Positions 17,415 to 57,037 of a stretch of 64,000 nt of DNA are shown piece after piece. Source of the DNA: Liolophura sinensis (Eukaryota > Mollusca > Polyplacophora > Chitonida > Chitonidae); assembly GCF_032854445.1 (NCBI RefSeq), contig NC_088303.1, positions 11,539,501 to 11,603,500 of the forward strand, given 5' to 3'. The first letter of the stretch is position 1, and each line of letters opens with the position of its first letter. The position numbers and the translations under genes were made by a program. The notes under the pieces are model-generated. The model was not told where the DNA came from. It was given only the letters and a program-made list of their open reading frames with translations, and made no database searches.

Positions 17415-19135
17415 AGGTTGGCCTGGTGTCACAACAGCATATTCTGCCTAAGTTCTGTGGCATATGCCTGGTGTCACAACAGTGTACTCTGCCTAGGTTG
17501 TGTGGCATATGCCTGGTGTCACAACAGGGTACTCTGCCTAGGTTGTGTGGCATGTGTCTGGTGTCACAACAGCGTGCTCTACTTAGGTTGTGTGGCATGT
17601 GCCTGGTGTCACAACAGCATACTCTGCATAGGTTGTTTGGCGTGTGCCTGGTGTCTCAACAGCATGCTCTACTTAGGTTGTGTGGCATGTGCCTGGTGTC
17701 TCAACAGCGTGCTCTACTTAGGTTGTGTGGCATGTGCCTGGTGTCACAACAGCATACTCTGCATAGGTTGTTTGGCGTGTGCCTGGTGTCTCAACAGCGT
17801 ACTCTGCCTAGGTTGTGTGGCGTGTACCTGGTGTCACAACAGCGTACTCTGCCTAGGTTGTGTGGTATGTGCCTGGTGTCACAACAGCATACTCTGCCTA
17901 GGTTGTCTGGCATGTGTTTGGTGTCACAACAGTTTACTCTACTTAGGTTGTTTGGCATGTGCCTGGTGTCACAACAGTGTACTCTGCCTTGGTTATGTGG
18001 CATGTGCCTGGTGTCACAACAGCATTCTCTGCCTAGGTTGTGTGGCATGTGCCTGGTGTCACAAAAAACATACTCTGCCTAGGTTGTGTGGCATGTGCCT
18101 GGTGTCACAACAGCGTACTCTGCCCAGGTTGTGTGCCATGTGTCTGGTGTCAGAACAGCGTACTCTGCCTAGGTTGTGTGGTGTGTGCCTCATGTCACAA
18201 CAGCGTACTCTGCCTAGGTTGTGTGGCGTGTGCCTGGTGTTACAATAGCATACTCTGCCCAGGTTGTGTGGCATGTGCGTGGTGTCACAACAGCATACTC
18301 TGCCTAGGTTGTGTGCCATGTGTCTGGTGTCACAACAGTGTACTCTGCCCAGGTTGTGTGGCGTGTGCCTGGTGTTACAAGAGCGTACTCTGCCTAGGTT
18401 GTGTGGTATGTGCCTGGTGTCACAACAGCGTACTCTGCCTAGGTTGTGTGGCATGTGCCTTGTGTTACAAGAGCATGCTCTGCCTAGGTTATGTGGCATG
18501 TGCCTGGTGTCACAACAGCATACTCTGCCCAGGTTGTGTGGCCTAGATACCTGGTGTTACAAGAGCGTACTCTGCCTAGGTTGTGTGGTATGTGCCTGGT
18601 GTCACAACAGCGTACTCTGCCTAGGTTGTGTGGTATGTGCCTGGTGTCACAACAGTGTACTCTGCCTAGCTTGTGTGGCATGTGCCTTGTGTTACAACAG
18701 CGTACTCTGCCTAGGTTGTGTGGTATGTGCCTGGTGTCACAACAGCATACTCTGCCTAGGTTTTGTGACATGTGCCTTGTGTTACAACAGCGTACTCTGC
18801 CTAGGTTGTGTGGTATGTGCCTGGTGTCACAACAGCGTGCTCTGCCCAGGTTATGTGGCATGTGCCTGGTGTCATAACAGCGTACTCTGCCCAGGTTGTG
18901 TGGCCTAGATACCTGGTGTCAAAGCAGCAAACTCTGCCCAGGTCATGTGGCCTAGATACCTGGTGTCACAACAGTGTACTTTGCCTAGGTTGTGTGGCAT
19001 AGATACCAGGTGTCACAACAGCATACTCTGCCTAGGTTGTGTGGTATATGCCTGGTGTCACAACATTGTACTCTGCCGAGGTTGTGTGGCGTGTGCCTGG
19101 TGTCACAACAGCGTATTCTGCCTAGGTTGTATTTT
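17415..19135. repeat. 45-bp minisatellite, about 38 copies
   Basis: The unit is 'cctggtgtcacaacagc', 'atactctgccta', 'ggttgtgtggcatgtg', summing to 45 bp. Because 45 is a multiple of 3, open frames run for hundreds of codons on both strands (295 aa on the plus strand from 17361, for example), with a 15-residue Cys-rich repeat on plus and another on minus. No start context, splice pattern or family homology supports translation. Subvariants (cata/cgta, gccta/gccca) alternate in blocks, and 'gcctagataccTGG' units cluster near 18540 and 18900-19010. Confidence 0.9.
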
Positions 19136-23510: not shown

Positions 23511-26500
23511 ATGACCAAGCGTGAGCCACTGCGTGGATACAGGAGGAGAATGAAGAATGAGGAGGAGGAGGAGGAGAAATCCTCTTATGAAACCCCTGCG
23601 AGAGGAAGAATGAAAGACATTGAGGATCAGGTCAGTTCTACCTATCGGACATGTGCATTATACTTGTTCAGCCTGTTAGAAAGTCAGATCTGTCATTATA
23701 AAACAGTTTCAAATTTCTCATTAGGGAACAGTTTTATTATTGGTAATTTAAATCAAGCTGATGACAGAGCAAATTGAATCCTCACAACCTGCCACATGTA
23801 ATATGGAACAGTATTTAACAGCTGCTTCTTGTAGAAGTTCTGTTTTTGTTATTGAAAATGTATTTTCTGTGGGTAAAATAGAAAGAAATATGATAGGATA
23901 TTACAGAAGCAGGAGCTGAGGAGCACATCCATGTATGGCTTTGATGAATAAGAAACATAAAACCTGAAAAGTTTATGTGGACTATATGTTGATGGACTGG
24001 TAGGTAGTGGCCAAATGAGTGTCACATTGGCCACAGGAGAATACCAGTGGCTTTGTTTCCACATTAGTATGTAACCCACGTGCAGTGTTCTTGTGTCAGC
24101 TGATATGAATGTGAAAGTGCAGCAAAAGCACAGAGGGCACTCTATTTCAGTATCACTCTTGTTGCACTTGTTCCAATCCGGAGAAATGGGGAGTAAAAAT
24201 CTCATTCACAAACGGTGATTTCGTGTTGATTTTTTTTTTTTTTTTTTTTTTTTTTCATTTGAAACTGCGTTCTCATCTTTCATCAACTTGAGAACAGCAA
24301 TTTAAATACGCCCATTCGTACCACTGCCTTCACAGAGTCTTATGCCAGTGGAGTTGACGGCCTGGGATGTAGATAGCTTTTCAACATGTACACCTCTACT
24401 ATAAATGTCAGCCACATTTAATCTTCTCTCTTTCAGAAATCAACTGGCTCAAGTCGTTCAGATCGTTTCCGTCGACGCCAGGATGTCAAAGAACAGGATG
24501 ACAACTACGAACTGGTGTTGAAAGGTGAGTGAAGCATGGCGGCTTGAAATGAAGAGTCATGAAAGAAAAGTGGATTGTGCGAAGAAAGCAACACCAAGCT
24601 GCCTTGGTATCATAGATCTCTTGAATAGTTTCACAAATAATTTATGCCTAAGCCATAAGGTATGATATGTGAAATGATGGATTGACAAAGTTTCCATTCA
24701 GTGGTTGACATCTTCCTCTTCTGTATGGTACGTGTATTTCTTACCATTATGTTTTGGATACCCTTGTGTAAAATCTTCCAAGCACAAATCACAGGTACAT
24801 CTATGCTCATCTCTTAAACATCCACTTAACTGTCATGTTGGAAGGGAGACTAATCAGTCATACAGGTAGGATTTAAATAGAAATTAATTGTGTTTCTACG
24901 TGTTTGCAGCTAGTGGTATTGATACAGTTGGGATGGATGAAGAGGAGAAAATTGAACTGGCTGTGAGTATCAGGGACTTTCCTGTTGTAACCATGTTTGA
25001 TGGTGGGGATCCGTGCGAGGATCAATCCTGGTTAATGTGTAGGCATACTCCTCATGAAATGAACACATGTACTTGTAACAACATTATTGGGGCTAAAGTT
25101 CAAATTCTTTAAAGGCAGTGTTGAAGAATTGTGATACTTACAGTGAATTTAGTATAAACTTTTACAAAGTAGTTATTTTTTATCATAAATTTAAACTTTG
25201 CAGAAAATTCTTGTGCTGTCGAAGTCAGAAGTGGAGCAGACAGGTGACGATATGTGTGTAGAGTGCCCTCTGGCCGGTAGGACCTCCTCTCCAGGAATAG
25301 TACTGGAAGTCGCAGGCACCAGCAAAGGGACGCTCAGGAGAAGTCCCACTGGCACCAGGACCCTGAGGAGAAGTCCTGCAATGCCAGCCTCTGACAACTC
25401 CAGTGATAGCTCCGTGGTCTGTTTAGATATGCTTGAACAGAAGCCTACAAAGACACCTGACCTGAGACAGATATCTACACAGGACCTGAAAGAACTTGAG
25501 GAGGAGGTATTATGATCTGTGTGGATAAGGGCTGGACAATGATGTCATCTTTTTAGGAAATGTATTATTGTTTAAGCTTCTCCATTTTTTTTTTTCAGTC
25601 TGTTATGTAAACCATATCATTGAAGTTTTAGGTTTTGAAATGGTATGAAACAAATTGATTTTTAGCTGCATTTCAAATGAAATCTAACTGGATGATTGGT
25701 GTCAGTAGTCCAGGTACAGGTGTCAAGATACTTCTGTGTCGGACTTTGAGGATGAAGATGTCAGGAGTCAATCCACCAAGTGCGAAAAACACTGCTGGTA
25801 ATCAGCAAGTTAAATTTAATCTGTTTCAAATCAAGAGAAATAAACATTAATGCTGGTACACACATGTATGTGCATGTAGCTAATGCGTTATTGATTTGGA
25901 AGCCTACACATTCATTACCCCAGTGAATGTAGCAGTGTTAACTTTGTTCTCTTTACCAGTATGATGGAGGAACACAGGCAAGCCCATTGAATGCTTCACT
26001 GAGTCAGATATTCTCTCATGATGAGGAAACCCAACCTCCATCCCAAGACCTCTTCAGTAAAGCGGAGGACAGCCGTCAAGGTCACGGCAGCCTGGGCTCA
26101 GATCAAGGTCATGGAAGCCAGGCTTCTAGTCATGTTCACTCTAGTCAAGACTCGAGTCAAGGTCAAGTGAGTCAAGGATCCGTTCAAGGTCAAAGATCAG
26201 TTCAGGAGTCAAGTCAGGCCCTTAAAGAGGTACACATGCATGTGTGTGTCAAAAATTACATATAATTATGACAAGAAAAATGTGGACGTTACAGCTATAT
26301 CTAGTTTAGAAGAAAATATATGGATCTGACGTTATCATGTTAACTAATGTTTGTATTTTTTTTACATCTGTGTTCCGTAGATTATTAATTTTGTTATGCT
26401 TTTTGGAATGGAGTGATACTCTAGTATGGTAGTTGTTCAAAAGCAACAGTATGAAAGTGGGAAACCTGGGATCAAGCCTGGGTCTGGTCTCACAGAAGAT

Positions 26501-29500
26501 TTCAAAATGGTTTATGTTGGGGCCTGACTTGGCCCTAAACAGTGAAAGGTTAGAGCAAGGAAACAGGATTGATTGGGTGGGTGTCAGTATTATGTGATTG
26601 GGTAGGGTGTCATGTCTTGTGTTTTTGGCTAACTTCCGTGGTGGTAGCACTTTGGCGGCATAACTCGCCTTGCCACTAGAAGACACAGTATTTGTACACA
26701 CACCTAATGACTCCTTGTCGTCATAAAAACTGAAAAATAGAAAAATTCTGAAGTATGATTGTAAAACGCAAGCATACATACATACTAAAGTGACAATATC
26801 TGATGACCTGGCTTTGTACAAGCTTTAATATATGTGATCTTTAATATGATTGTTGATGACTGGAATATAGTAAAGCAAAAATTATAATAAATAAAGGAAC
26901 AAATATAATGATGGAGGGTAGGATTCAAAATAACTGGGCTAATGGTACTGTAAATTTGCGGTGTACATGTAAGAAACTTTTCAGCGTTCTGTATTTCTTA
27001 AATTTGAACCCTACAGGGAAAGTTTGCCTATTTTCAGATCCCTGAAGAAATAGAAATAGCAGATTGTCCTACTTTAGCAGAAGACCTGGTAGATGGAGAT
27101 TTTCCTGTCACATATCATGGAGACGAGAAAAGGACTCGGCAAGTTTTCTGCGAATCACTGAAAGACACAAAATCACATGGGTCCACCTACATTGAGGTAA
27201 AAGTTCAAAGCCTGGAAGATGAGGAGTCACCAAGAAGGTTTGTTTGAATTTCTTTCACCTGTCTTACCAGCAATGTAAAAAGTTGGTTTGATGCTCAGAG
27301 AAGTTTGTACATCTAGCTTTTGTAATTATTTTATAATTTTTTGTGCAGTTCCCCAAAATGTTACTCGAAATGTGGTGGATACCTTTTGGGAAAGTGTTTT
27401 ATCTTTACATGTGATATAATTAAGTATTAATGGTTTTTCAAATATTTGAGAACGTGCCTGTGATAGGATTGTAGAGTTAGAATAGTCCAAATTCTGACCA
27501 AACAGTATATTGAGGATTATCATTCAACAAATACACTTTTCAGCTTTTCGCCTGTTGAGGAGAGCAGACCCCTGCATGGTGCAGGGCGAAAACGAAAGGC
27601 CACACATGTGGTTGATCCAGAACCTAAACAAGGACGTCTGGAGGTGGATACTGAGGAGGTTAGTCAATGTGTCGGTTCCTTTATCTGTTTGTCTTGTCTG
27701 TTATAAATATCTGCTTGACACCATGCTAATGATTGTTACGTTTTTGTCACACTTTTCTTTTCAGCCCATCAGTTTCAGTATGGGGACATATCTACTGGAT
27801 ACTGACAAATCCCATCCTCAAGTCTCTAAACCACTGAAGAGGCATTACAGGTATCTTGATAACCAACAAGAAATACAACTTGAATCAGAATATATAATCT
27901 GGATTAGAGGTCAAAATTGTTGTAAGTTGGTGGGGGGATGGGGGTAACTGTAACCATGTAGACAGGCTATCTAGTGTCAAGTGCAGCCATACATTGTTGT
28001 TAGTTGGTGGGGGGAGGGGGGTAACTGTAACCATGTAGACAGGCTATCTAGTGTCAAGTGCAGCCATACATTGTTGTTAGTTGGTGGGGAGGTAACTGTA
28101 ACCATGTAGACAGGCTATCTAGTGTCAAGTGCAGCCATACATTGGAAGATCTGCCAGCAATGTGCGAATGGTCTTGGATTCCCCCAGGCTCTAACCGGTT
28201 TTCATCCACCATAATGCTGGCCGCCGTCGTATAAGTGAAATATTCTTGATTATGGCATAAAACACCAATCAAATAAATAAATAAATAGTGTCGAGAGAGG
28301 ACTTAGTGCAGCACATGGTCTGCAGGGAAAATGAGAGTAAATAGCATGTCAGTCTTTAAAAGGTCAGCCAAGATAGAAGCACACTCAAGAAGTCATGATG
28401 AGACAATATTGGAGTGGTGGAACAGTTATTTATTTATTTATTTGAGTTTGTGTTTTTTACGCCGTGCTCAAGAATATTTCACCTGTATGATGGCGGACAG
28501 CATTATGGTGGAAGGAAACCAGACAGAGCCTGATGGAAACCCACGACCATCCACAGGTTGCTGATAGACCTTCTCGCATGTGAACATTTATTTGTTTTGC
28601 TGAGTTTAATCAGTTTAATAATGATTATAGGTGTACTTTATGATCAGTTGTCTAGGAAATCGCTACAATAATTTTTTGTTTTTATTATTTGTTATTTTTA
28701 TTGTTTATTATTTGTATTTATTTGTTTGATCGGTGTTTCACACCGTACTTAAGAATATTTCAGTTATACAACTGCAGCAAGCATTATAGTGGGAGAAAAT
28801 CCGGCAGAGCCCATGGGAAACCCACTATCATCTGTAGGTTGCTGGCTTACCAGCTTATTAGTGAACAAGTTAAATTGAATGCTAAATACTTGACTACATT
28901 TTTGCACACATGTTGATGTTTTGTTTCTGCTAAATCCACTGCGTTTCCTCCGTGTATAACATTGACTGATTACAATGCACAAACAGTTGAATGAAAAGTA
29001 AAAGTAACTAAATACTAATGCATATGTTTCAGGAGACAGCGCCGTACAGTAAGTATATGACATATATTTGTTATATTATCTTTGCAGTTATATGTGAAAA
29101 GATAAAGTAGCTGATAGGTGAAAAGACTACTGAGATTCGTGCCGTGGGCTGTATTCAAATTAATAATTCATTAACTGTGTCCACACCGACAAACGATATT
29201 GGCCAGATGAGCAATGTTTGACATTATTTCTTAACACATTTAGGGAACATTCCTGATTGCGGGACATGAATGATAACAAAACTGTTAAAAAAACAAATGA
29301 ACGTTATAAAAACGTCTAATGCTTTTGTCTGCTGTGCCAAGATACTGTAATTTGCTTGAATCATCATATTGTTACCACCCTGAAGTAACAGAGATGTTTG
29401 GCCACTAAGATTTAGGATTTTCAGGCTGTGGGCGAGGCCGCATGGCCTAGAGGTTAGCATGCTAGCCCAGCGGGATGATCTCACCAGTACAAATGGTCGT

Positions 29501-32500
29501 CAGTTTCCTCCCACCATAATGTTGGCCATCGTTCAAGTGGAATATTCTTGATTAAGGCATAAAACTCCAGTCAAATAAATAAATGAATAAAGTTATTGGT
29601 GCTCAGTCTTAAGAGGCTGGGCAAAGCAAGGGTTGCATGTTGCCAGCATGTCGTGACTGCAAAAGGTGTCTTGTCATGTCTTGGAAATGTACACACATTG
29701 GGACAGGCTTGCCACAAGGACATGATGTTGTGTTGAAATGATGTGCAAAGTGACATACTCCAAGCAAACAAACATACATCATAACTGTTAGTAGAAAAAA
29801 ATATAACAGACTGTTGTTGGAACAGTTTCAAAGTGCTTTTTCAGCTAATACATACTTTTCTCATAAGTGATTGTTTACCTTGTATGGTGAGGTCTTTTGA
29901 TGTTGATATTACTAAGCTGATAATTAGCAAAGTTTGATGCTGTATTAACAAATAGGTAAACTGTATTATATATTCTGTATTCTGTCTTTCGTCATTGCAG
30001 TTGAAGGAGAAGAAGTACTTCAGCACCTCCAGTGCCAGTGTTGACTGCAACCATTACACAGACGTGATATTCCAATTGTTCGAGGCATACAGGATGAAGT
30101 TACGAGATGCTCAATTTGGGAGACTAACACGTGTACCCTGGGGAGAACCAGTTAGAGTTGGGCGACACATGTCCAGAACTATTGATCTAAAAAAGAGAGG
30201 TCGAGACTCTTGCTATTTTGAAAGGCTTGATCCTGAAGAGGATGCTTTAGAAGAATTTGCAGCAAGAAAAGCCAGAGAGCTTGCTGAATCTCCAACCGAC
30301 ACTCCAACAATGGGCTCAAAAGTAAGTGTGTTTGAGGATGGGGCCGACAAAGATCCAGATTTCACTCCTATGTTAGACTTGGAAAATGATGATGATGATT
30401 TTGTCAGCATTAAGAAGGTGTCCCGCACCAAGAAAAGGAAAAGCCCTGATTCAAGCCCTGAGGTTGAAGAGTTACCAGATGTTGAAGATTGGTTGTGTTC
30501 TAGGGGAGGTAACTCTGGAAGATATAGGTCATTGGGTACCAGGGGTAAAGTTAGAGGCAAAGCAGTCAAAAGGCCACAACTTGACTTTGTGCAGGACAAA
30601 TCTGTTGAAAATCAGTTTGATCGGGAATTGGCCGGAAAAAGAACGAGTCTGTCAGTTAAAGCACCTAGTAAGACATACAGTAAGAGGTCAAAAGCTTACA
30701 TTAGGCTTGTACGTAGTGACTCGCCAGTGTTCATGGTTGGTGATGATGAAGTGTCGAGCTCAGATGGGGAAGATGAGAGTTCTACTAAAGGTGCTTGTCC
30801 TACCCAAAGTGCGGAGAAACGTTCAGTCCGCAAAACTTTCACGTTCAAGTCTAGTGCTTCCGGCAAGGTGGAAGTGTCAACAGAAATTGATGTTTTATCA
30901 GGAGATGGAGATGTTGAAGAAGTCAAAGGTCATGAATGGTCAAGTCATAAACCAAAATTGCTGTCTCAAGAAAGATCGCCAACATTTTCACGTTCGAGAA
31001 CTGGGAATAGACCTAGCCTTGCCATGATGCAGGAGAAAAGTGTGGAATGCTCTGAACTCCAGTCAAAGAAAGATGAGATTTGTTGTATAGAGGAAATTCC
31101 CAGTACGTTACCTGAACGGGATGAGGATACTTCAAGAGCTGGAGATAAGACGAGAACTGGTACAGATAGTGACACAGAGATTTGGGACTGTGGGCGTTTC
31201 TCTAGCAGAGATAACAAGGGAAGAGGCAGTCAGATGGAGAGTAAAACTAATACTAAGGATGATAACATTGATAATAAGAAATTTGGAACTGGAAAAAAAT
31301 CAACTGCGGCAAGATGTTTGAAACTAGCAAGTGGTAATAAGAATACCCAACAAAGTAAACAGGATTTGACCATTTTGGATTTGGCAAAGGCAACATCCAT
31401 ATTAGGACCATCCACATTGGAAACAGAGATTGGAAAATTAGATGAGGACAATTTCAATATTCCATCATCTGCTGTTTTCCAATCTCGGAAGAAAAGGCAC
31501 TCTTCAAATTTGTTCTCTGAAAGTGACGAGAGTTTCAACCTGGGTGTGAGTCCTGTGAAAGCTTTCCCAGTAATATTTGAGGGCACCTCTTCAGACAATT
31601 CTCCATCAAGCAGTGGACATGATGCATTGACTCCATCACCTACGTTTGGATCTAAATCAACACTTTTGGCTGCAGAAGATCAGCAAAGTGTAAAAATAAT
31701 CAACCCAATCTTCCCTGATGATAATGATGATGATGACGATGTGTACAATGCCACTACAGAAGAGGACATCTCTACTGACAAGGAAACCCGACCAATTTCA
31801 GATGTGCAGGATGTGCCACAAAAACATGATGAACACCAGTGTTCAGCCGTGGTAGAACAAGATGGGGGTCAAGGTGATGGAAAGCCAGCAGCAGAGGTTG
31901 ACAACATCAACCAGGACAAACCTGTAAGTGCTCTGTCTCATTGCCCTGTAGCAGCTTTAGCTCAGAGATCAGATTAGATCAACAGTGAGGAAATGTTCAA
32001 ATAATATACATGTATACTCATTTACTGTACTGTTGTCTGGTTGATGGCATCCTAATGTGGCTAGGCTGCGATGGTGGTCTGGAGGTAACAGGGACTATCA
32101 AGCATACAGAATGTCAGGGGTTCAATTCTAAATAAGTTCATAACAAAAGAGTCTGCTGGGAAATGTCACTTCACACAGTGTGTGACCCTCTCGCTACTAT
32201 TCTACTTGTAGGTATAGGCAAGGTGTCTGGTTTGATGTGAGTCTGGTCTGGTCTAGTCTGATGTATTAGTAGGAATGGTGTCTGGTCTGATGTATGAGTC
32301 TGGTTTGATGTATGTCTGATCTGATGTATGAGCCTGGTCTGATGTATGAGTCTGGTCTGATGTATGAGTCTGATCTGATGTATGAGTCTGGTCTGGTCTG
32401 ATGTATGAGTAGTAATGGTGCTTGGTCTGATGTATGAGTAGCTAGAATGTCTGGTCTGATGTATGAGTCTGGTCTGATGTATGAGTCCAATCTAATGTAT

Positions 32501-35500
32501 GAGTCTGGTGTGGTCTGATGTATGAGTAGTAATGGTGCCTGGTCTGATGTATGAGTAGCTAGAATGTCTGGTCTGATGTATGAGTCTGATCTGATGTATG
32601 AGTCTGGTATGGTCTGATGTATGAGTAGTAATGGTGCTTGGTCTGATGTATGAGTAGCTAGAATGTCTGGTCTGATGTATGAGTCTGGTCTGATGTATGA
32701 GTCCAATCTAATGTATGAGTCTGGTGTGGTCTGATGTATGAGTAGTAATGGTGCCTGGTCTGATGTATGAGTAGCTAGAATGTCTGGTCTGATGTATGAG
32801 TCTGATCTGATGTATGAGTCTGGTCTGGTCTGATGTATGAGTAGTAATGGTGCTTGGTCTGATGTATGAGTAGCTAGAATGTCTGGTCTGATGTATGAGT
32901 CTGGTCTGATGTATGAGTCCAATCTAATGTATGAGTCTGGTCTGGTCTGATGTATGAGTAGTAATGGTGCCTGGTCTGATGTATGAGTAGCTAGAATGTC
33001 TGGTCTGATGTATGAGCCTGGTCTGATGTATGAGTCTGATCTGATGTATGAGTCTGGTATGGTCTGATGTATGAGTAGTAATGGTGCTTGGTCTGATGTA
33101 TGAGTAGCTAGAATGTCTGGTCTGATATATGAGTCTGGTCTGATGTATGAGTCCAATCTAATGAATGAGTCTGGTTTGGTCTGATGTATGAGTAGTAATG
33201 GTGCCTGGTCTGATGTATGAGTAGCTAGAATGTCTGGTCTGATGTTTGAGTATGATGTGGTCTGATATATGAGTAGCTCGGGTGTCTGGTCTGGTAAATG
33301 AGTCTGGTCTGGTCTGATATATGAGTAGCTAGTGGGTCTGGTCTGATGTATGAATCTGGTATAGTTTGGTGTATGAGTCTGGTGTGGTCTGATGTATGAG
33401 TAGACCTGGTGCCTGGTCAGATGTATGAGTGTGGTGTGGTCTGATGTGCGAGTAGCTAGTGGGTCTGGTCTGATGTATGAGTCTGGTGTGGTTTGATGTA
33501 TGAGTCTGGTGTGGTCTGATGTACGAGTAGACATAGTGCTTGGTCTGATGTATGAGTAGCTAGTGGGTCTGATCTGATGTATGAGTCTGGTGTGGTCTGA
33601 TGTATGAGTAGGTAAAGTGTCTGGTTTGATGTATGATTCTGGTCTGGTCTGATCTGATGTATGAGTAGACATGGTGTCTGGTCTGATGTATGAGTAACTA
33701 GAATGTCTGATCTGATGTATGAGTAGACATGGTGTCTGGTCTGATGTACATGAGTCGCTGGGGTGTCTGGTCTGATGAATGAGTATGGTGTGGTCTGATC
33801 TGATGTATGAGTAGGCGTGGTGTCTGGTCTGATGTACATGAGTAGCTAGAATGTCTGATCTGATGTATGAGTAGACATGGTGTCTGGTCTGATGTACATG
33901 AGTAGCTAGAGTGTTTGGTCTGATGTACAATAGTCGCTGGGGTGTCTGGTCTGATGAATGAGTATGGTGTGGCCTGATCTGATGTATGAGTAGGCGTGGT
34001 GTCTGGTCTGATGTACATGAGTAGCTAGAGTGTTTGGTCTGAAGAATGAGCCTGGTCTGGTCAGGTCTGATCTGGTGTATGGGAAGGGCGTGGTGTCTGA
34101 TCTGATGTATGAGTAGGCATGGTGTCTAGTCTGATGTATGAGTCTGGTCTGGTCTGGTCTGATCTGTTCTGATGTATGAGTAGGCATGGTGTCTGGCTGA
34201 TCTATGAGTGTGTAGAGGGTCTGGTCTGAGGTATGAGTAGGCATGGTCTCTGGTCTAATGTATGTTAAGCTAGAGTGTCTGGTTTGATATATGAGTGGAA
34301 AGGGGTCTGGTCTGATGTAGGAGTAGACAGGGTGTCTGGTTTGATGTATGAGTAGGTATAGTGTCTGGTCTGATGTATATAGCAGCTAGAGTGTCTGGCC
34401 TGATGAATGAGTCTGGTCTGGTCTGATCTGGTCTGATGTTTGAGTAGGTATGATGTCTGGTCTAATGTATGTGAAGCTAGAGTGCCTGGTCTGATGTATG
34501 AGTAGACCAGGTGTCTGGTCAGAAGTATGAGTAGGCATAGTGTCTGGTTTGATGTATGAGTAGGCATAGTGTCTGGTCTGATGTATATAGCAGCTAGAGT
34601 GTCTGGCCTGATGAATGAGTCTGGTCTGGTCTGATCTGGTCTGATGTTTGAGTAGGTATGATGTCTGGTCTGGTGTATGAGAAGCTAGAGTGCCTGGTTA
34701 GATATACGAGTAGGAATGGTGCCTGGTCTGATGTATGAGTAGACCAGGTGTCTGGTCAGAAGTATGAGTAGGCATAGTGTCTGGTTTGATGTATGAATAG
34801 GCATAGTGTCTGGTCTGATGTATATAGCAGCTAGAGTGTCTGGCCTGATGAATGAGTCTGGTCTGGTCTGATCTGGTCTGATGTTTGAGTAGGTATGATG
34901 TCTGGTCTGGTGTATGAGAAGCTAGAGTGCCTGGTTAGATATACGAGTAGGAATGGTGCCTGGTCTGATGTATGAGTGGTCTGATGTATGAGTAGACCAG
35001 GTGTCTGGTCAGAAGTATGAGTAGGCATAGTGTCTGGTCTGATGTATGAGAAGCTAGAGTGTCTAGTCTGATGTATGAGTAGCTAGAGTGTCTGATCTGA
35101 GGTGTGATTATTCAGGGTGTTTGGTCTGATGCCTCAGTGAGGAAGCACTGTAAACTGGATGCACTTGGGCATATTGCGTCATAACACTGAACTATGTGGA
35201 AGGTGGGAAAATGTTGATGCAAACAAGTTGAGCCCAGAGTCAGTGTGTCTTCTTTTAGTTTAAATATACCCTGGTGAGGGCGCACATTGAACTTGAAGTC
35301 GCTGTGAGTTATGTGTAGGTTAGAGAAGGATATTATTTCCAAATTCCAAAACAACTTGTTCATGTGTGTGTCATGTTAACCTATACGTGTGTTAAGCTAC
35401 ATGTAAAGATGTATTGTTTGCTGCTGACCACATTACTTGACTTAGAGATAAACCTGTAGCCAGATGAATTAAAATCGTGATGATGTTTAAATGTAGACAT

Positions 35501-38500
35501 GTGTGAAGTACTCACATTTAGAAAGCACATTTCTTTTTCGTTTTCGAAATTAGGAATTCAGCCAGACACTGTTTCAAAGAATTAAATGAATCATTAGATT
35601 GCTTGACTGATTTAAACTGAATATTTGTTGACTTGTAGACTGATGGTATGGCTTGTCCCCTGTGTGCTGTGACCTTCAGTATGGAGAATATTGAGGCTCA
35701 TGCCTCAGCCTGTAACGGAGTACCACCAGGTAAGGCTTCTCACCTATACATAGGACGGTGCTTGTGTCATAGGCTGATGGTATGACTTGTCCCCTGTGTG
35801 CTGTGACCTTCAGTATGGAGAATATTGAGGCTCATGCCTCAGCCTGTAACGGAGTACCACCAGGTAAGGCTTCTCACCTATACATAGGACGGTGCTTGTG
35901 TCATAGGCTGATGGTATGACTTGTCCTCTGTGTGCTGTGACCTTGAGTATGGAGAGTATTGAGGCTCATGCCTCAGCCTGTAATGGATTACCACCAGGTA
36001 AGGCTTCTCACCTATACATAGGACGGTGCTTGTGTCATAGGCTGATGGTATGACTTGTCCCCTGTGTGCTGTGACCTTCAGTATGGAGAGTATTGAGGCT
36101 CATGCCTCAGCCTGTAACGGGGTACCACCAGGTAAGGCTTCTCACCTATACATAGGACGGTGCTTGTGTCATAGGCTGATGGTATGACTTGTCCCCTGTG
36201 TGCTGTGGCCTTCAGAATGGAGAGTATTGAGGCTCATGCCTCAGCCTGTAACGGGGTACCACCAGGTAAGGCTTCTCACCTATACATAGGACGGTGCTTG
36301 TGTCATAGGCTGATGGTATGACTTGTCCCCTGTGTGCTGTGACCTTCAGTATGGAGAATATTGAGGCTCATGCCTCAGCCTGTAACGGGGTACCACCAGG
36401 TAAGGCTTCTCACCTATACATAGGACGGTGCTTGTGTCATAGGCTGATGACTTGTCCTCTATGTGCTGTGACCTTCAGTATGGAGAATATTGAGGCTCAT
36501 GCCTCAGTCTGTAACAGATTACCACCAGGTAAGGCTTCTCACCTATACATAGGACAGTGCTTGTGTCATAGGCTGGTGGTATGACTTGTCCTCTGTGTGC
36601 TGTGACCTTGAGTATGGAGAGTATTGAGGCTCATGCCTCAGCCTGTAACGGAGTACCACCAGGTAAGGCTTCTCACCTATACATAGGACGGTGCTTGTGT
36701 CATAGGCTGATGGTATGACTTGTCCCCTGTGTGCTGTGACCTTCAGCATGGAGAATATTGAGGCTCATGCCTCAGCCTGTAACGGAGTACCACCAGGTAA
36801 GGCTTCTCACCTATACATAGGACGGTGCTTGTGTCATAGGCTGGTGGTATGACTTGTCCTCTGTGTGCTGTGACCTTTAGTATGGGGAATATGGAGGCTC
36901 ATGCCTCAGTCTGTAACAGATTACCACCAGGTAAGGCTTCTCACCTATACATAGGACGGTGCTTGTGTCATAGGCTGGTGGTATGACTTGTCCCCTGTGT
37001 GCTGTGACCTTGAGTATGGGGAATATTGAGGCTCATGCCTCAGCCTGTAATGGATTACCACCAGGTAAGGCTTCTAACCTATACATAGGACGGTGCTTGT
37101 GTCATAGGCTGGTGGTATGACTTGTCCCCTGTGTGCTGTGACCTTGAGTATGGGGAATATTGAGGCTCATGCCTCAGCCTGTAACGGATTACCACCAGGT
37201 AAGGCTTCTAACCTATACATAGGACGGTGCTTGTGTCATAGGCTGGTGGTATGACTTGTCCCCTGTGTGCTGTGACCTTGAGTATGGGGAATATTGAGGC
37301 TCATGCCTCAGCCTGTAACGGATTACCACCAGGTAAGGCTTCTAACCTATACATAGGACGGTGCTTGTGTCATAGGCTGGTGGTATGACTTGTCCACTGT
37401 GTGCTGTGACCTTGAGTATGGGGAATATTGAGGCTCATGCCTCAGTTTGTAACAGAGCACCACCAGGTAAGGCTCCTCACTTGTGCATACGACAACGCTT
37501 TTGTTGCAAACTGAGGGTATGGCTTGTCCCCTGTGAGCTGTGACCTTCAGTATGGAGAGTATTGAGGCTCGAGGCTCATGCTTCAGTCTGTAAAAGAGTA
37601 CCACCAGATAAGGCTTCTCATCCATACATAGGACGGTGCTTGTGTCATAGGCTGATGGTATGGCTTGTCCCCTGTGAGCTGTGACCTTCAGTATGGAGAG
37701 TATTGAGGCTCGAGGCTCATGCTTCAGTCTGTAAAAGAGTACCACCAGATAAGGCTTCTCATCCATACATAGGACGGTGCTTGTGTCATAGGCTGATGGT
37801 ATGTCTTATCCCCTGTGAGCTGTAACCTTCAGGGTTGATGGAAGTGGCCCACTATATTACACATTTTACAGCAATTCATGGATTTACATAATTGAAATCT
37901 GAAAGTGTTGAAACCCCCCAAAGGTGTGTCTGACAAGAGGACTACCTAAGTTTACTCTAAGTGTTCACACAGGGGCTTGTCTGTAGTGTGTTGGAGGAGA
38001 GCTGACTCTGATCTGTTTTTCATACAGGGTGTCCAGGACACATGAGGTGCTGGTTCAAATCCGGCCTGGGACAGGGAATTTTTAGATACAACAGCTTGAA
38101 CTGCTGTGTATATTGCAATATATAGTGTTCGTATTTGTATGTCGCAGGTGGGAAACTTTGTAAGTAACTTTTCAAGGATTGGTGGTTTTGCACTGGTTTT
38201 CCCCACCCATAAGTCAAAGAATGGTGGTTTTGCACTGCTTTTCCTCACCCATAAGTCAAGAATTGGCGGTTTTGCACTGCTTTTCCCCACCCATAAGTCA
38301 AGGATTGGTGGTCTGCACTGCTTTTCCCCACCCATAAGTCAAGGATTGGTGGTTTTACACTGGTTTTCCCCACCCATAAGATGGAACCGCCATAAACTTG
38401 TATGGTGGGGAAGCCTCCATGCCCGACGGGGTTAGCACGCCTGTGCGGCGCAATGACCCAAGAGCCTCTCACCAATGTGGTTGCTGTGAGTTTAAGTCCA

Positions 38501-41500
38501 CTCATACTGGCTTCCTCTCCACCCATTGGAAGGTCTGTCAGCAATCTGCAGATGGCCTGGTGTTTCACCCGGGCTCTGCCCGGTTTCCTGCCACCATAAT
38601 GCTGGCCACTGTTAGTGAGTACCGATACGGCATAAAACACCAATCAAATGAACAAAATTGTATGGCTATAGTTTAAACAACAGGTATATAAATAAATAAA
38701 GTACTGGTATGGTATGTTTGAAAATCCCAGGTCATTCTACCTAAATCCAGTATATGTAACCTGCCCTGAGCAAGATCAGGACATTACTCTGGTGGCACAG
38801 TGTTAGAGACTTGGCACATTATTAAACACTGAGACAGTTGTGTTTATTTCGTACTAGGTGATCAGGGTGAGGGTGGAGAAGAGAGAGCTGAGGACTGGAG
38901 GTTTGCGCTAGGCCAACAGGATAACACTGGGGATGGGTAAGACACTGTATGGGGGTTTCAGGTGGCTGTCTCATGACTCTCTGGGGAAAGGTATATGTAC
39001 ATGGCTAAAAGGCTTAAAGTGAAATCCTAAAATCAGGCTGCATTTGGTTCAGTAGCTTATGTGAATAGTACACTGTTTGCATTAAAATAGGCATGGTGTA
39101 AAACAGTTATATGAGAAGATCTTTGTGAGGTGTACATGTAAGCCTGTGCTGGGCTACATGTGAAGACTGAGACAAGACAAGATAGGTTTCTTATGGATAA
39201 CAACTTCTTGTTTATGAAACGACGTTTCGATGCCGATGCTAGCATCATTTTCAAGCATCAGTACTAGCATCAGTAAAAAAGCAGAGTTTATATATGTACA
39301 GCCTGAGATACAAGTGTCAAAGAGAGATAACAGAGTTCAAAGGATTAACAAAGTATTAAACAAAAGATTCAGGACTCAGAACACCCTGAAAAACCACGTT
39401 CAAGCTAATGGAAGGAACATGTCCACGCCCAAGACTACCCCACATGGCGTCGTATACCAGATACAATGCAGCTGTAACCAGTACCACATTGGTGAGTCCT
39501 GTCGACCCTTAGACAAACGTATTAAAGAACACCAGACCTCAGTCAGAAATCAGACTCAAAATCCGTCATTTCAGACCACATCAAAACCCAACTCACTCAA
39601 TCAACTGGAACAATATCAAGACCCTGAACACCAACTTACATCACTGTAAACAAAGAAAACTACAAGAATCCCTGCAGATTAGACGCCTTAATCCAGCCCT
39701 CAATAGAGACACCGGTATCTACCTGCTTATGATCTGTTAATCCTCTAGCAACCCCACAGAGCCTAATCCGATTAGAGAAATTTTATTCTACTATGTTAAC
39801 TGATTTATTTTAGATAAGCTTTTCCATCCATAAGAAACCTATCTTGTCTTGTTTGAGTCTATTATAAAAATGCGCAGTGCATTCAGTAACCCTATCTACT
39901 CGACTCGAACACACAGACCCTCTCTTCAGATCTCTGAATATTTTACTGGTAAAATTCTCTACCCTTCAGTCTTCTTTATTAATCGCTCATAAATATATAT
40001 ATCACCCCTATAAAATACCCTGAAACATGTTTTGAAAACAATCAGATATACACAATTATCCAACAAGAACTCCACTCTTCCAACCTGTCTCTCTACTCAT
40101 TTCGAAGTATGATCCCCCAGGAATGGAACAGGCTCCCGATTTCTCTAAAATGTATTGACTTTCTCTTTTTAAGTCCAAAATAAAAGATTACTTGATGAAA
40201 CATTCTTGACTTATTTACAAACATGTAAATGTCTCACAGCAATGCACCATAGCATTTCTTTTGGCACGTGACACTGCTTTGTGTTTTTCTTAAATATGTT
40301 ATTATTTACTTATAATTCACCTACAACCAACGCCATTTTACGTACTTGTACTTCCTCGGGATAGATCAAGACTTTTGTGACTTTATTCCCGCCATGCTTT
40401 ATTTTCTGTAAACATGTTTTGTAATTATATTTATGGTGAATAAATACAGTACATTTGTTTATCCTTTGTTTAATACTTTGTTATTCCTTTGAACTCTGTT
40501 ATCTCTCTTTGACATTTGTATCTCAGGCATGTAATATATAAACTCTGCTTTTCTACTAATGTCAACCACTTAAAAATGATGCTAGTATCGCCATCGAAAT
40601 GTCGTGTGCTTAATAAACAAGAAATTGTTATCCATAAGAAAATTATCTTGTCTTAGCTCAACTCTCTACTTCTAAATGCCATTGAAAGAAGTCATATAAA
40701 GACTGACTCACACAAAAAATGGTGTGATATAGTTGGGCAAGTAGAGCAAGTCTACAATCTGCTCCCATGGGCTGTACACGTATTCAACAATAAGAAGTGG
40801 CTTTTTCTGATACGTTCAGAGATAAGAATTTTCTCATTTGTTATGCAGGTCTTTTGAATAGCTGGTTTGGCATGAATGTCCTTTTGTTTAGCCTGCATGT
40901 ATTCTGAACTCCCATTGGCTATGATACAATGTACCAAACAAATCAGTCATCGATTTGCTAATACAGGTTTTTTGGTGCGTTCTTATGTTATTGTTTAGTG
41001 AGGAAGAAAGCTGCTATATCTGTGATGGTGTCTTCACTAAGGGGGAGGAGTACCAAAGACATGTGGATGAGTGCCTGGCAGAGGCACGGAGACAGCAGGA
41101 GCAGCTGGAGAAGGGGCCAAAGGCCAGGAGAGGCAGGGCCACCAGGAGTAGACCAGTCAGAGAGGCGAAGGATGGTAAGGAGGCTCTGTGGAAAGGTGAC
41201 AAGTACAAACCTTGACACCAGCATGAGAATAAGACTAATTCTTTATCACAGACACTGAGTAGAAACCAGTGACGAAAGAAAATTGTTGTCTTTTTTTTGT
41301 TTATCTGTATTTAAGTCATTGGAATGCGTCATAAGTTGTTGCTTGGGTGTCATGTTTTCTCTTGAGTTGTTTTCAGATTCAGTTTCCATTGCCAATGAAC
41401 CAACAGATTACACCCTGTCTCTTCTTGAATTCCATTTTAACCTCATTACAATCTTTGCTTTCTTGTCTACCTGGGGCTAGCTTTTTGACCGCAATGTGTC

Positions 41501-43280
41501 ACAATGTTAATCTTGTATGATAGTTCGTCATGGTTTGCTGTTAGTTTGTTGCACGTCTCCATTTTCGTGTCAAGTGAGATATATTCTCAAGATTTAGAGA
41601 TCTTTAAGCTTGAGGAATCTTTGAAATATCATGAATTATCATATATTAGTCGTAGTTTGAACCCAAGAGCGTTGTGATGTATTTGTATTTGGATGTGAAC
41701 AAATTGTCGTCGTGATAGGTGAGATGTTCATACGATTAAAACAACACACTTAAATGTTCATGGTTTAGTTGTTATGCCATTGTGACAAACTCGTGGAATA
41801 TTCTCTAAATGTAGTGTGTAAATGTTCTTCAATCACTCACAATTCTAACACATATGCCAAATCAGTACTACATGGAGAATAGAGACTTCTATAGTCTGCT
41901 TCATATATGTATATCACAGTGCATAAGCAGTGAACTTTCTCACACAATTGAACATTGTTGTCAAGGAGCTTTGTAGTAGTGTTCGGCAGGGTTGTTATAT
42001 GAAGGTGTCATGTATTAGATACAAATAATGGCTTCATTCAGTTTGTATATGCTGTGATAACTGCCGTAAAATGGGAAGTGTCCACTGTTTTTGGATACCT
42101 CCTTTTTTTCATGATATTTCACACATTATGATATATTGCCGTCAACATTCTGAAAGTGGGCAAGTAAGCTTGCTTTGTTCCTGATCTGTTTGCACACACA
42201 CTAAGCCTGATATGCTGTTGTGTTTTAAGTGCACAGGTGTCTGCTTTATGTTTTGCTTGTTTCGTTATTGTTCACACCTGTTCAACTTCATGTGATTCTT
42301 AGAGGTAGACGGTGGTAACCAAGGCAACCAAGATGTCACCCACAAGAAACGCAAGGTCGAGTGAGTGCGTGTTACTTTTGTTCCTCTCTTTTTTCTGTTT
42401 TCATGTGCAGGAAATCCTTTAAATTATTGTCATGCTCTGAAGTTAGAAAAACTAATCTAACCAAGAGCATATTGCATGATCATTGTGTATGTAAAGTGTA
42501 ACAACAAGGATCTAAAAGTTTTTCAAACCATAATTGTTCACTTTGATGCAGCCATACCTAGAGCCATTTTGGCTCCCAAAGGTTTTGGCATTTTATAAAC
42601 TTTCTTCATGCACAGTCACAATGGAACCTTTAATAAAAGTCTGGGATCAGAATCATCAATTTTTTGTCTAGATATGACCGTGAACCCACTCCAATGAGGT
42701 CACTTTTTTAATCTCAGCTGTTGCAAAGTTTGGCTCATGTGAAAGCCTCTGCAGCTGCACATCCACACTTGTTATACATAACATAGTAGATCTGACAGAA
42801 AAGCTTTAACAAATGTTGTGGTTACATGTGCATGTATATGCTACTGTCTCTGTGAGTACGACAATCGGTGTACTCTTATTTTTGTGTAGCAATGCTGATG
42901 TGTTAAAATGGCTGATGTGTTACAGGACTGGATTAGAAGTGACAGGCCAGGAGGCGACTGCCAGTAGCCAGTGCTTCTCGACCAGTGAGTCTGAGAGAGA
43001 GTCTGACACAGACGAGTCCAGGGACAGCAGTGAAAGACCCAGAGTTGTGCCAGCACCTAGACATAAGCCAGGCACAGACATCGACTTCAGCACTGTCAGC
43101 AACTCCCCTATCAAAACCTTCCGTAAGATAGGCCAGCTAGAGGACTGTCTTATAGACTTTAACAACCAGTTCAAAAAGTCTGACAAGATTAAAAGAAAAC
43201 GAGCGAAGACAAGGACAAAAAGGAAGGGACGAACAGGGAGAAGAAAAGGATCGAGGTGCAAGAAAACTGTTAAGACGTAG
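23511..43280 (+). CDS. UIMC1: RAP80 / UIMC1 homologue, BRCA1-A complex ubiquitin reader
   Basis: Coding exons: 23511-23630, 24437-24524, 24910-24962, 25204-25506, 25960-26229, 27038-27237, 27544-27658, 27765-27850, 29033-29048, 30001-31923, 35639-35729, 38858-38936, 40999-41174, 42303-42360, 42926-43280. All phases agree: 3933 nt, about 1310 aa (human is about 720). In order: acidic N-terminus; UIM-like 'MDEEEKIELA' at about 78; SQ/TQ cluster at 189-278; Abraxas-interacting region at about 420-470 ('CNHYTDVIFQLFEAYRMKL', 'WGEPV'); a long acidic/Ser linker; zinc finger 1 (C1064, C1067, H1079, C1083); zinc finger 2 (C1120, C1123, H1135, C1139); and C-terminal 'NSPIKTFRKIGQLEDCLIDF' plus a basic tail, as in vertebrate RAP80. 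The family binds K63-linked ubiquitin at DNA breaks and recruits BRCA1-A in the nucleus. The exon at 23493 is open upstream of Met 23511, so more N-terminal sequence is possible. Exon 11 lies in a tandem array of copies. Confidence 0.9.
26405..26770 (+). repeat. SINE (ACTCA-tail family) in UIMC1 intron 5
   Basis: It shows the B-box-like 'gggatcaagcctgggtc', then 'gaaaggttagagcaaggaaa', 'gggtgtcagtattatgtga', 'gccttgccactagaagacac' and 'cacacctaatgactccttg'. The terminal ACTCA repeats have decayed. It lies in the intron, about 270 bp before the acceptor at 27036-27037. Confidence 0.7.
27917..28148. repeat. Three-copy tandem repeat, about 70-75-bp unit
   Basis: Three near-identical copies of 'ttgttgttagttggtgggg', 'gtaactgtaaccatgtag', 'acaggctatctagtgtcaag', 'tgcagccatacattg', with a G-run of variable length. 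It lies in UIMC1 intron 8, just upstream of a SINE. Confidence 0.85.
28145..28290 (+). repeat. SINE (AAATA-tail family)
   Basis: Blocks 'ggaagatctgccagcaatgt', 'ggttttcatccaccataatg', 'gaaatattcttgattatggc' and the 'caccaatcaaataaataaat' tail identify the family. The tRNA-like head is missing. Confidence 0.75.
28428..28580 (-). repeat. SINE, reversed (AAATA-tail family)
   Basis: Starts with the reversed tail 'ttatttatttatttatttg' and runs through 'acgccgtgctcaagaatatt', 'gcattatggtggaaggaaac' and 'ccatccacaggttgctgat', the reverse complement of the family blocks. Confidence 0.75.
28715..28860 (-). repeat. SINE, reversed (AAATA-tail family)
   Basis: A third family copy within 600 bp, again reversed: 'tatttgtttgatcggtgttt', 'caccgtacttaagaatattt', 'gcattatagtgggagaaaat', 'atctgtaggttgctggct'. 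It lies about 170 bp before the 16-nt microexon of UIMC1. Confidence 0.7.
29430..29585 (+). repeat. SINE (AAATA-tail family) with tRNA-like head
   Basis: The head 'ggccgcatggcctagaggtt', then 'agcatgctagcccagcggg', is A-box-like. It is followed directly by 'gtttcctcccaccataatgt', 'ggaatattcttgattaaggc' and 'aataaataaatgaataaag'. The middle third is deleted relative to 51083-51300. Confidence 0.75.
32215..35130. repeat. Higher-order minisatellite in UIMC1 intron 10
   Basis: About 2.9 kb built from an approximately 18-bp core 'ggtctgatgtatgagt' with variant linkers. Between 32400 and 33240 the marker 'agtaatggtg' recurs at steps alternating near 117 and 99 bp, so a higher-order unit gains or loses one 18-bp core. 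After 33240 the array is more irregular, with 'tagctaga', 'agacatggtg' and 'aggcatagtg' linkers. Core units are mostly multiples of 3, which leaves a 554-codon minus-strand frame from 33930 that encodes only a repeated HQTRPDSYIRPD-type peptide. This is not credible as a gene. Confidence 0.9.
35639..37835 (+). repeat. Tandem array of UIMC1 zinc-finger-1 exon, about 17 copies of 134 bp
   Basis: Copy 1 (35639-35729) is the exon that fits the gene model. Exon-like copies follow at 35773, 35907, 36041, 36175, 36309, 36443, 36572, 36706, 36840, 36974, 37108, 37242 and 37376, each 91 nt with an AG before and GTAAGG after, and each keeping CPLC-x11-H-x3-C. Copy 7 (36443-36528) has a 5-nt deletion that shifts the frame. 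Copies 15 (37510) and 16 (37651) have a 7-nt duplication and a GT-to-AT donor change; copy 15 also lacks the acceptor AG. Copy 17 (37792) breaks off at about 37835. Protein variants occur at FSMEN / LSMES / FRMES / LSMGN / FSMGN and NGV / NGL / NRL / NRA. Spacer introns are 43 nt. Confidence 0.93.
38170..38390. repeat. Minisatellite, about 42-bp unit, 5 copies
   Basis: Repeats of 'aaggattggtggttttgcac', 'tggttttccccacccataag', 'tc' in UIMC1 intron 11, directly upstream of a SINE. Copies vary at tgg/tgc and aagg/aaga. Confidence 0.8.
38395..38665 (+). repeat. SINE (AAATA-tail family), nearly full length
   Basis: Runs from 'ggttagcacgcctgtgcgg' (tRNA-like) through 'caatgacccaagagcctctc', 'accaatgtggttgctgtgag', 'tttaagtccactcatactgg', 'ggaaggtctgtcagcaatct' and 'cggtttcctgccaccataat' to 'cggcataaaacaccaatcaa'. 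It matches 51083-51300 block for block. Confidence 0.85.
39171..40660 (+). mobile_element. Degenerate Penelope-like element with GIY-YIG fragment
   Basis: A frame at 39230-39649 encodes 'HGVVYQIQCSCNQYHIGES' followed by 'CRPLDKRIKEHQTSVRNQ', the GIY-YIG endonuclease region found in Penelope-like retroelements (GVVY ... YHIG ... Arg ... KEH). The reverse-transcriptase part is not recognisable. About 190 bp at 39171-39365 is repeated inverted at about 40455-40660 ('cttatggataacaacttctt' pairs with 'aagaaattgttatccataag', and further in 'caaagagagataacagagtt' with 'aactctgttatctctctttg'). A shorter extra inverted copy lies at 39827-39855. The whole lies in UIMC1 intron 12 and is defective. Confidence 0.75.

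Positions 43281-47481: not shown

Positions 47482-57037
<9,556 letters not shown>

What the first reader, a model, noticed from the sequence alone, without database searches (positions are those of the whole stretch)
35639..37835. RAP80 zinc-finger exon amplified about 17 times in tandem
The exon for the first zinc finger of the UIMC1/RAP80 homologue recurs with an exact 134-bp period. Copies 1-14 keep AG, GTAAGG and the zinc ligands C-x2-C-x11-H-x3-C; only copy 7 is frameshifted. They differ at finger residues (SMEN/SMES/SMGN, NGV/NGL/NRL/NRA) next to the ligands. In the known protein this region is near the BRCA1-A and ubiquitin-binding machinery. A DNA-repair adaptor with a menu of alternative fingers would be new to my knowledge.
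Basis: partly seen in the sequence, partly recalled or inferred. Interest (0 to 1): 0.88.

Follow-up and report, generated by a model that had tools for sequence, protein, structure and literature searches.

The report
Tandem-repeated RAP80 zinc-finger exon
In a chiton's single copy of the DNA-repair gene RAP80, one small zinc-finger exon has been copied head-to-tail about 17 times; the reading frame allows only one copy per full-length message, and the splice signals suggest the first copy does most of the work while the others are passengers or decoys, though a real choice of fingers is not ruled out.

Summary
The array is real (35639-37832). It lies in a gene found once in the 609-Mb Liolophura (chiton) assembly, the RAP80/UIMC1 orthologue. 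Fourteen units carry a zinc-finger exon (91 nt, phase 0 to 1; 86 nt in copy 7) plus a 43-nt spacer; 13 are open with all C-x2-C-x11-H-x3-C ligands, giving 9 peptides. Copy 7 is frameshifted; copies 15-17 are decayed. Of 16,384 subsets of copies 1-14, only the 13 single open copies keep the frame open to the second finger: the formal anatomy of a mutually exclusive exon cluster.

The 'menu' is not shown. All 14 donors are strong (CAG|GTAAGG), but the acceptor shared by copies 2-14 scores below copy 1's and below ten others of the gene. The only database protein enters copy 1, reads through its donor and stops in copy 2. Replacement changes are at the neutral level (13 of 20; 13.5 expected), and similar arrays occur elsewhere in the genome. 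Against this, exons vary more than spacers (15/91 v 1/43 sites) and no ligand, stop or splice dinucleotide was hit (joint P 0.037).

Best reading: a minisatellite captured a coding exon; copy 1 is constitutive, the rest mostly passengers and decoy donors. Mutually exclusive use remains possible.

The parts
23511..27851 (+). Upstream exons of the RAP80/UIMC1 orthologue (start codon 23511; exons about 23511-23630, 24437-24524, 24910-24962, 25204-25506, 25960-26229, 27038-27237, 27544-27658, 27765-27851)
   Evidence: P0001 (NCBI LOC135475132, 1106 aa) mapped on the window by exact peptide blocks; 5 of 1106 residues (413-417) unmapped, so a further small exon lies between 27851 and 30001
30001..31923 (+). 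Large exon before the array; donor CCT|GTAAGT at 31924, phase 0
32225..35131 (+). 29-bp-based minisatellite filling most of the intron before the array
   Evidence: TRF
35639..35729 (+). Copy 1: zinc-finger-1 exon, 91 nt, phase 0 to 1, with its own acceptor (AG-free zone 41 nt, branch-site-like TTGAC/CTGAT) and donor CAG|GTAAGG
35773..36399 (+). Copies 2-6 (exons at 35773, 35907, 36041, 36175, 36309, each 91 nt), open, ligands kept; shared low-scoring acceptor
36443..36528 (+). Copy 7: 86 nt, 5-bp deletion, frameshifted relative to its own acceptor (in frame only if read through unspliced from copy 6)
36572..37466 (+). Copies 8-14 (exons at 36572, 36706, 36840, 36974, 37108, 37242, 37376), open, ligands kept; spacers 11-13 carry CTAAC in place of CTCAC
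35730..35772 (+). 43-nt inter-copy spacer (first of 13; 9 of 13 identical, 4 with one change); candidate branch A at spacer position 13, internal AG at 23-24
37467..37509 (+). Spacer 14: donor kept, 13 of 43 sites changed, terminal AG lost
37510..37832 (+). Decayed copies 15-17: TGA at second Cys; copies 15 and 16 with a 7-bp insertion (period 141) and donor ATAAGG; copy 17 truncated
38858..38936 (+). Exon after the array, entered in phase 1
40999..41174 (+). Exon with zinc finger 2 (C-x2-C ... H-V-D-E-C, with the Asp)
42937..43280 (+). C-terminal exon (start junction uncertain; ...SPIKTFRKIGQLEDCLIDF...), stop at 43278-43280

Best explanation
A 134-bp stretch made of the zinc-finger-1 exon plus 43 nt of its intron was amplified in tandem by the same minisatellite-type process that is common in this genome. 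Copy 1 kept its own acceptor and is the constitutive exon: large exon (31923) -> copy 1 (35639-35729) -> 38858 -> finger 2. Copies 2-14 are mostly passengers, with 13 further strong donors but a poor shared acceptor. When copy 1's donor is bypassed, the frame stops in copy 2 and a RAP80 lacking finger 2 and the C-terminus results, as in the NCBI model. Because the exon changes phase (0 to 1), a message with no copy or with more than one copy is frame-broken, so occasional use of another copy can only swap one finger for a near-identical one. Shown: array, phases, frame test, splice-site sequences, one gene found in the genome. Inferred: which acceptor is used, passenger status, amount of truncated product.
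For: Acceptors: copy 1 scores 6.9 on a matrix from this gene's 11 other acceptors, scored leave-one-out (ten score 3.0-11.9; the eleventh, the uncertain C-terminal junction, -1.9). Copies 2-14 score -12.4 (copy 8: -11.9); pyrimidines 0.47 against 0.53 for copy 1 and 0.53-0.88 for the ten. With generic weights (recalled) they lie at the 74-80th percentile of decoy AGs, copy 1 at 88-91, the ten at 85-99.9, the uncertain junction at 40-43. P0001 joins the large exon to copy 1, then reads GKASHLYIGRCLCHRLMV and stops. Replacement level: 13 of 20 exon changes, 13.5 expected by chance; pN/pS 0.81. Background: 10.6% of 200 kb from 20 sites is tandem array, with 2 arrays of period >=80 and >=5 copies, one of 144 bp x 18. 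No docking-selector pairing clearly above shuffles.
Against: Exons vary more than spacers: copies 1-13 without 7, 15 of 91 v 1 of 43 sites, Fisher 0.021; copies 2-13 without 7, 13 v 1, 0.037; with copy 7, 16 v 2, 0.056, or 14 v 2, 0.091; without the core donor and acceptor bases 0.067-0.23. Synonymous sites share it (mean pS 0.073, spacers 0.0095), as if splicing held the spacer. None of 20 exon changes hits a ligand, makes a stop or breaks AG/GT (joint P 0.037; copy 7 set aside). The lack of a yTnAy motif in the AG-free zone before copies 2-14 is not diagnostic: 5 of the 10 firm acceptors lack it too, and two of these have AG-free zones of only 15 and 20 nt. A CTCAC or CTAAC sits 30 nt before the array acceptors, with an AG 11 nt after it that might be skipped. 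The matrices rest on few or recalled data. The NCBI truncation may reflect multi-mapping reads.
Confidence: 0.46

Rival explanations
1. Redundant mutually exclusive exons: the spliceosome may pick any of the 13 open copies, one per message, because the 43-nt spacers are too short to splice neighbours together and other combinations break the frame; the fingers are functionally equal, so the array drifts.
For: Only the 13 single open copies out of 16,384 subsets work. Spacer 43 nt with a branch-site-like A 13 nt from the donor, below the ~50-nt steric threshold quoted in PMC7969005 and PMC5740500 (passages). Exon/spacer contrast and spared ligands. pN/pS near 1 fits redundancy.
Against: Low-scoring acceptors in copies 2-14. 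A 43-nt intron can be spliced in human cells (PMC4463651, passages), so length alone does not forbid joining. The one database protein uses copy 1.
Confidence: 0.25
2. Regulated menu: copies 1-6 and 8-14 are alternative fingers with different binding, chosen by tissue or stage, and shuffled by recombination.
For: 9 distinct peptides, 7 distinct cores; variants shuffled among copies (24 of 45 site pairs fail the four-gamete test; 10 of 28 with strictly biallelic sites). Most replacement changes lie in codons 12-18 and 24-28 while ligands stay fixed.
Against: No excess of replacement changes; changes at the hydrophobic places are conservative (F/L, I/M, V/L); several copies are identical in protein (2=6=9, 11=12=13); no docking system found; low-scoring acceptors.
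Confidence: 0.13
3. Truncation switch: the array acts as an alternative 3' end, making a RAP80 without finger 2 and C-terminus.
For: The only database model ends this way. Two protein searches whose queries held finger 2 found no protein of this species with it (1 hit each; they cover proteins of about 478-1522 and 126-400 aa only; the hit is an ORF 76% identical to the C-terminal exon, from another source).
Against: Copy 1's donor scores 8.7 against -0.3 to 9.2 for ten others. Finger 2 and C-terminal exons are open and similar to human, so full-length protein is presumably made.
Confidence: 0.1
4. Assembly artefact (copy number wrong or array invented).
For: The assembly has only 14x HiFi coverage (PMC11068029, passages); copy number could differ between haplotypes.
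Against: Mean HiFi read 8,347 bp (same paper) is longer than the 2.2-kb array; most copies differ individually; decayed copies mark one end.
Confidence: 0.03

Closest known systems
Mutually exclusive exon clusters (Dscam exon clusters, OGDH 4a/4b; human survey PMC5740500)
   Same: Tandem homologous exons of equal length and phase; length not divisible by three so joint inclusion breaks the frame; short inter-exon intron with a branch-site-like motif near the donor.
   Different: No transcript evidence; low-scoring acceptors before copies 2-14; no docking site found; open copies 86.8-100% identical rather than long-diverged; a zinc finger of a repair adaptor.
Intragenic minisatellites / VNTRs
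   Same: 134-bp unit, near-identical copies, decayed edge units, in a genome rich in such arrays.
   Different: The unit contains a complete coding exon with its donor, so each unit is formally a spliceable exon.
RAP80/UIMC1 zinc finger 1
   Same: C-x2-C-x11-H-x3-C, position before finger 2 and the SP[IV]K[TS]F...DCL[IV]DF C-terminus, by alignment to PDB 9sqy_I.
   Different: One such finger in the aligned human chain; 13 open exon copies in the chiton gene.
UBZ4 ubiquitin-binding fingers (RAD18)
   Same: Zinc-ligand spacing (that UBZ4 has this spacing is recalled; CCHC ligands are stated in PMC4267625, passage).
   Different: The Asp two residues after the His (RAD18 D221) is Ser in 13 of 13 open copies.

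Membership tests
RAP80/UIMC1 orthologue | Sequence similarity over both C-terminal zinc fingers and C-terminus | tested here: met
   phmmer E=1.7e-11 to 9sqy_I residues 506-714
RAP80/UIMC1 orthologue | N-terminal ubiquitin-interacting motifs | tested here: inconclusive
   Pfam scan of P0001 at E<=1 shows no UIM family and P0001 has no PDB match at E<=0.1; a UIM-like DEEEKIELA stretch is visible, and such short motifs are easily missed
RAP80/UIMC1 orthologue | Single gene in this genome | tested here: met
   All matches of P0001 (24 of 24) and of the downstream exons (3 of 3) lie in this locus (the tool scores best candidates only)
Mutually exclusive exon cluster | Tandem homologous exons, same phase, joint inclusion or skipping breaks the frame | tested here: met
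   13 of 14 single copies open; 0 of 91 pairs, 0 of 364 triples, 0 of 1001 quadruples, 0 of 14913 larger sets, and not the empty set
Mutually exclusive exon cluster | Each exon has usable acceptor and donor | tested here: inconclusive
   Donors strong in 14 of 14; acceptors of copies 2-14 low-scoring
Mutually exclusive exon cluster | Junction reads from every copy to both flanks, none between copies | not testable with these tools
   No reads available; only one database protein, using copy 1
Docking-selector system (Dscam type) | A flanking docking site complementary to all spacers | tested here: not met
   Best duplex energies equalled or beaten by 10, 5, 14 and 24 of 60 shuffles in four flanking stretches; 5 of 60 is the nearest to a signal (37836-38857)
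UBZ4 ubiquitin-binding zinc finger | C-x2-C-x11-H-x3-C | tested here: met
   13 of 14 copies
UBZ4 ubiquitin-binding zinc finger | Conserved Asp two residues after His (RAD18 D221; described as present in all zinc fingers shown to bind ubiquitin to that date, PMC3157352 passage; its place is counted by me taking C207 as the second ligand) | tested here: not met
   Ser in 13 of 13 open copies; Asp present in finger 2
UBZ4 ubiquitin-binding zinc finger | Pfam zf_UBZ match | tested here: not met
   Genome search with PF18439 matched only another contig; Pfam scan of fingers 1 and 2 at E<=1 shows no zf_UBZ. Finger 2 fails too and I did not check which UBZ type the model covers, so this counts for little

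The most novel reading that the evidence does not exclude
A DNA-repair adaptor of the BRCA1-A complex carries a 13-member mutually exclusive exon cluster encoding 9 versions of its first zinc finger, enforced by phase and by 43-nt spacers, with variants shuffled by recombination in a minisatellite: a variable reader module generated by repeat instability.
Probability: 0.13. Interest if true: 0.85.

Novelty: new variant of a known kind. Interest (0 to 1): 0.42.

Why it matters
If copies are used, this would be a large exon menu in a DNA-damage adaptor and a route by which ordinary minisatellite expansion creates mutually exclusive exons with no regulatory machinery: an out-of-phase exon plus a spacer too short to splice makes 'exactly one copy' automatic. 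If only copy 1 is used, it shows how a gene tolerates a repeat expansion through its own coding exon: the upstream acceptor stays unique, extra copies stay silent, and the price is decoy donors and truncated messages. Either way it suggests how such arrays can derail automatic annotation: the one database protein of this gene lacks finger 2.

Tried and rejected
Docking-selector base pairing between the spacer and four flanking stretches: 10, 5, 14 and 24 of 60 dinucleotide shuffles did as well. Rfam in 31900-38900: 0 matches at gathering scores. Positive selection on the finger: replacement fraction at the random level. Purifying selection on each copy: not demonstrable, pN/pS 0.81. Sister-species arrays: the protein search with an alignment of 11 read-through copies (11 of the 13 open copies; 6 and 12 left out, as well as 7) found no candidate; this says little, as the search needs shared exact words. 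Another search found only a 125-aa ORF, 76% identical over 106 residues to the C-terminal exon, presumably from a related chiton, without the array region. Paralogue that would relieve this gene: none found. P0001 as a whole has no PDB match at E<=0.1; orthology rests on the C-terminal part. Absent branch-site motif in the AG-free zone of copies 2-14: dropped as an argument, since 5 of 10 firm acceptors of the gene lack it too. For that reason I moved the odds of the best explanation from 0.50 to 0.46 and of redundant exclusive use from 0.22 to 0.25.

Papers: ten searches. The search for UIMC1 with 'mutually exclusive exons' gave two papers; in PMC5417364 I read the single passage that names UIMC1, a gene list on hypoxia and splicing; the other I saw only in the listing. 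The searches joining tandem exons with minisatellites or with molluscs gave 1 and 3 papers, none about this gene by title and abstract start. Of every paper cited I read passages only.

Full report
What is there. The window lies in a 609,464,459-bp, 632-contig genome. Eight of the nine contig lengths I saw equal entries of the scaffold table of the Liolophura japonica assembly (609.5 Mb, 632 scaffolds; the ninth is 82,489,547 against 82,493,220; PMC11068029, passages). The one matching database protein is named Liolophura sinensis LOC135475132. TRF reports a 134-bp array at 35636-37832, 16.3 copies. Seventeen units can be anchored: 14 with AG, a 91-nt exon (86 nt in copy 7) and CAG|GTAAGG, 43 nt apart; then three decayed ones with a TGA at the second Cys, of which copies 15 and 16 also have a 7-bp insertion and ATAAGG, and copy 17 is cut short.

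The gene. The upstream exons are those of P0001, mapped to 23511-35782 except for 5 of 1106 residues; gaps between mapped blocks are 106-3715 nt, and the 2149-nt gap must hold a further small exon. The translated chain finger 1 - exon 38858 - finger 2 - C-terminus matches human RAP80 (PDB 9sqy_I) at E=1.7e-11. Downstream exons and P0001 match only this locus (3 of 3 and 24 of 24 matches). P0001 enters copy 1, ignores its donor and stops at the TGA in copy 2. No database protein of this species with finger 2 turned up in two searches, which cover proteins of about 478-1522 and 126-400 aa. That P0001 is an automatic RefSeq model is my inference from its name.

Frame logic. The donor at 31924 leaves phase 0; the exon is 91 nt; the acceptor at 38858 needs phase 1. 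I joined every subset of copies 1-14 in order: the frame stays open to finger 2 in 13 of 14 single-copy cases and in no other case (empty set, 91 pairs, 364 triples, 1001 quadruples, 14913 larger sets). Exactly one copy is therefore forced if the full protein is to be made. That is the anatomy of a mutually exclusive cluster. [quoted passage not shown] The length alone does not prove exclusion, since a human 43-nt intron is spliced (PMC4463651, passages).

Splice sites. All 14 donors are CAG|GTAAGG, scoring 8.7 against -0.3 to 9.2 for ten others in the gene. Copy 1's acceptor scores 6.9 (AG-free zone 41 nt; branch-like sites at 29 and 33 nt). Copies 2-14 share GGACGGTGCTTGTGTCATAG|G (one base different before copy 8): -12.4 or -11.9 against 3.0 to 11.9 for ten others and -1.9 for the uncertain C-terminal junction. 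With generic, recalled weights they rank at the 74-80th percentile of decoy AGs, copy 1 at 88-91, the ten at 85-99.9, the uncertain one at 40-43. An AG inside the spacer scores 2.07, above the -2.12 of the acceptor that defines the copies. Two cautions: the matrices are small or recalled, and the missing branch-site motif in the AG-free zone of copies 2-14 means nothing by itself, because 5 of the 10 firm acceptors lack it as well. This is a ranking, not a measurement. It points to copy 1 as the working exon and to copies 2-14 as strong donors with poor entrances.

Variation. Among copies 1-13 without 7 there are 15 variable sites in 91 exon positions and 1 in 43 spacer positions (Fisher 0.021). 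Other cuts give 0.037 (13 v 1, copies 2-13 without 7), 0.056 (16 v 2, copies 1-13) and 0.091 (14 v 2, copies 2-13); leaving out core donor and acceptor bases, 0.067 to 0.23. Synonymous sites share the excess (mean pS 0.073, mean spacer difference 0.0095). In the dead copy 16 the two parts differ from copy 2 alike (7 of 91 plus an insertion, 3 of 43). Spacer 14, which leads to a dead copy, differs at 13 of 43 sites and has lost its AG. These facts favour real use of the spacer signals. On the other side, 13 of 20 exon changes are replacements where 13.5 are expected, and pN/pS is 0.81. That none of the 20 hits a ligand, makes a stop or breaks AG/GT has joint P 0.037 (no stop 0.80, no ligand 0.12, no splice dinucleotide 0.40), with the frameshifted copy 7 set aside. 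Variants are shuffled (24 of 45 site pairs incompatible; 10 of 28 for strictly biallelic sites), giving 9 peptides and 7 cores, of which 2=6=9 and 11=12=13 are identical. Open copies are 86.8-100% identical in pairs (78 pairs).

Background. In 20 stretches of 10 kb of the same genome, 10.6% is tandem array; two arrays have period >=80 and >=5 copies, one 144 bp x 18. The window has 13 arrays of 200 bp or more after merging, some of them pieces of the array that fills the intron just upstream. A minisatellite that swallowed an exon needs no special cause here.

Finger. The ligand pattern is that of UBZ4, but the Asp two places after the His is Ser in 13 of 13 open copies, while finger 2 has it (RAD18 D221, PMC3157352 passage). 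So finger 1 is not a predicted ubiquitin binder of the RAD18 kind; in human finger 1 that place is also not Asp (alignment, HAMYC).

Judgement. Observation confirmed; gene confirmed; the 'menu' is unproven and, on splice-site evidence, less likely than a working copy 1 with passengers, though the margin is modest. The first base after junction 31923 (A for copy 1, G for copies 2-14) should make the question answerable with existing RNA-seq.

Noticed in passing
36309-36584: Copy 7's 5-bp deletion puts it in frame with copy 6 if the spacer is retained: a 91-aa open frame with two fingers.
   Followed up: no
37065-37375 (spacers 11-13): Spacers 11-13 carry CTAAC in place of CTCAC before copies 12-14; both fit the loose branch-site pattern.
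   Followed up: partly
32225-35131: 29-bp minisatellite in the preceding intron; its minus strand has a 619-aa open frame, presumably a by-product of the repeat.
   Followed up: no
38380-38660: Interspersed repeat of about 280 bp with related pieces in the window and in 14 of 20 background stretches; looks SINE-like.
   Followed up: partly
39218-39649: Open frame resembling a GIY-YIG endonuclease tail of a Penelope-like element (recognised from memory); Pfam gave no match at E<=0.01. A related inverted piece lies at 40461-40605.
   Followed up: partly
27852-30000 and 41175-42936: Exon structure not fully settled: 5 residues of P0001 are unmapped before the large exon, and the frame of the TGLEVTGQEAT start suggests a missing small exon before the C-terminal exon.
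   Followed up: no
14591-14827, 47482-49163, 62099-62464: Neighbours by Pfam: TAF10 (+), an RsmB/F-type methyltransferase, probably NSUN5 (-; name from memory), and an Arf-family GTPase (+).
   Followed up: partly
17421-19130: 45-bp minisatellite of about 38 copies with open frames of up to 303 aa on the + strand.
   Followed up: no
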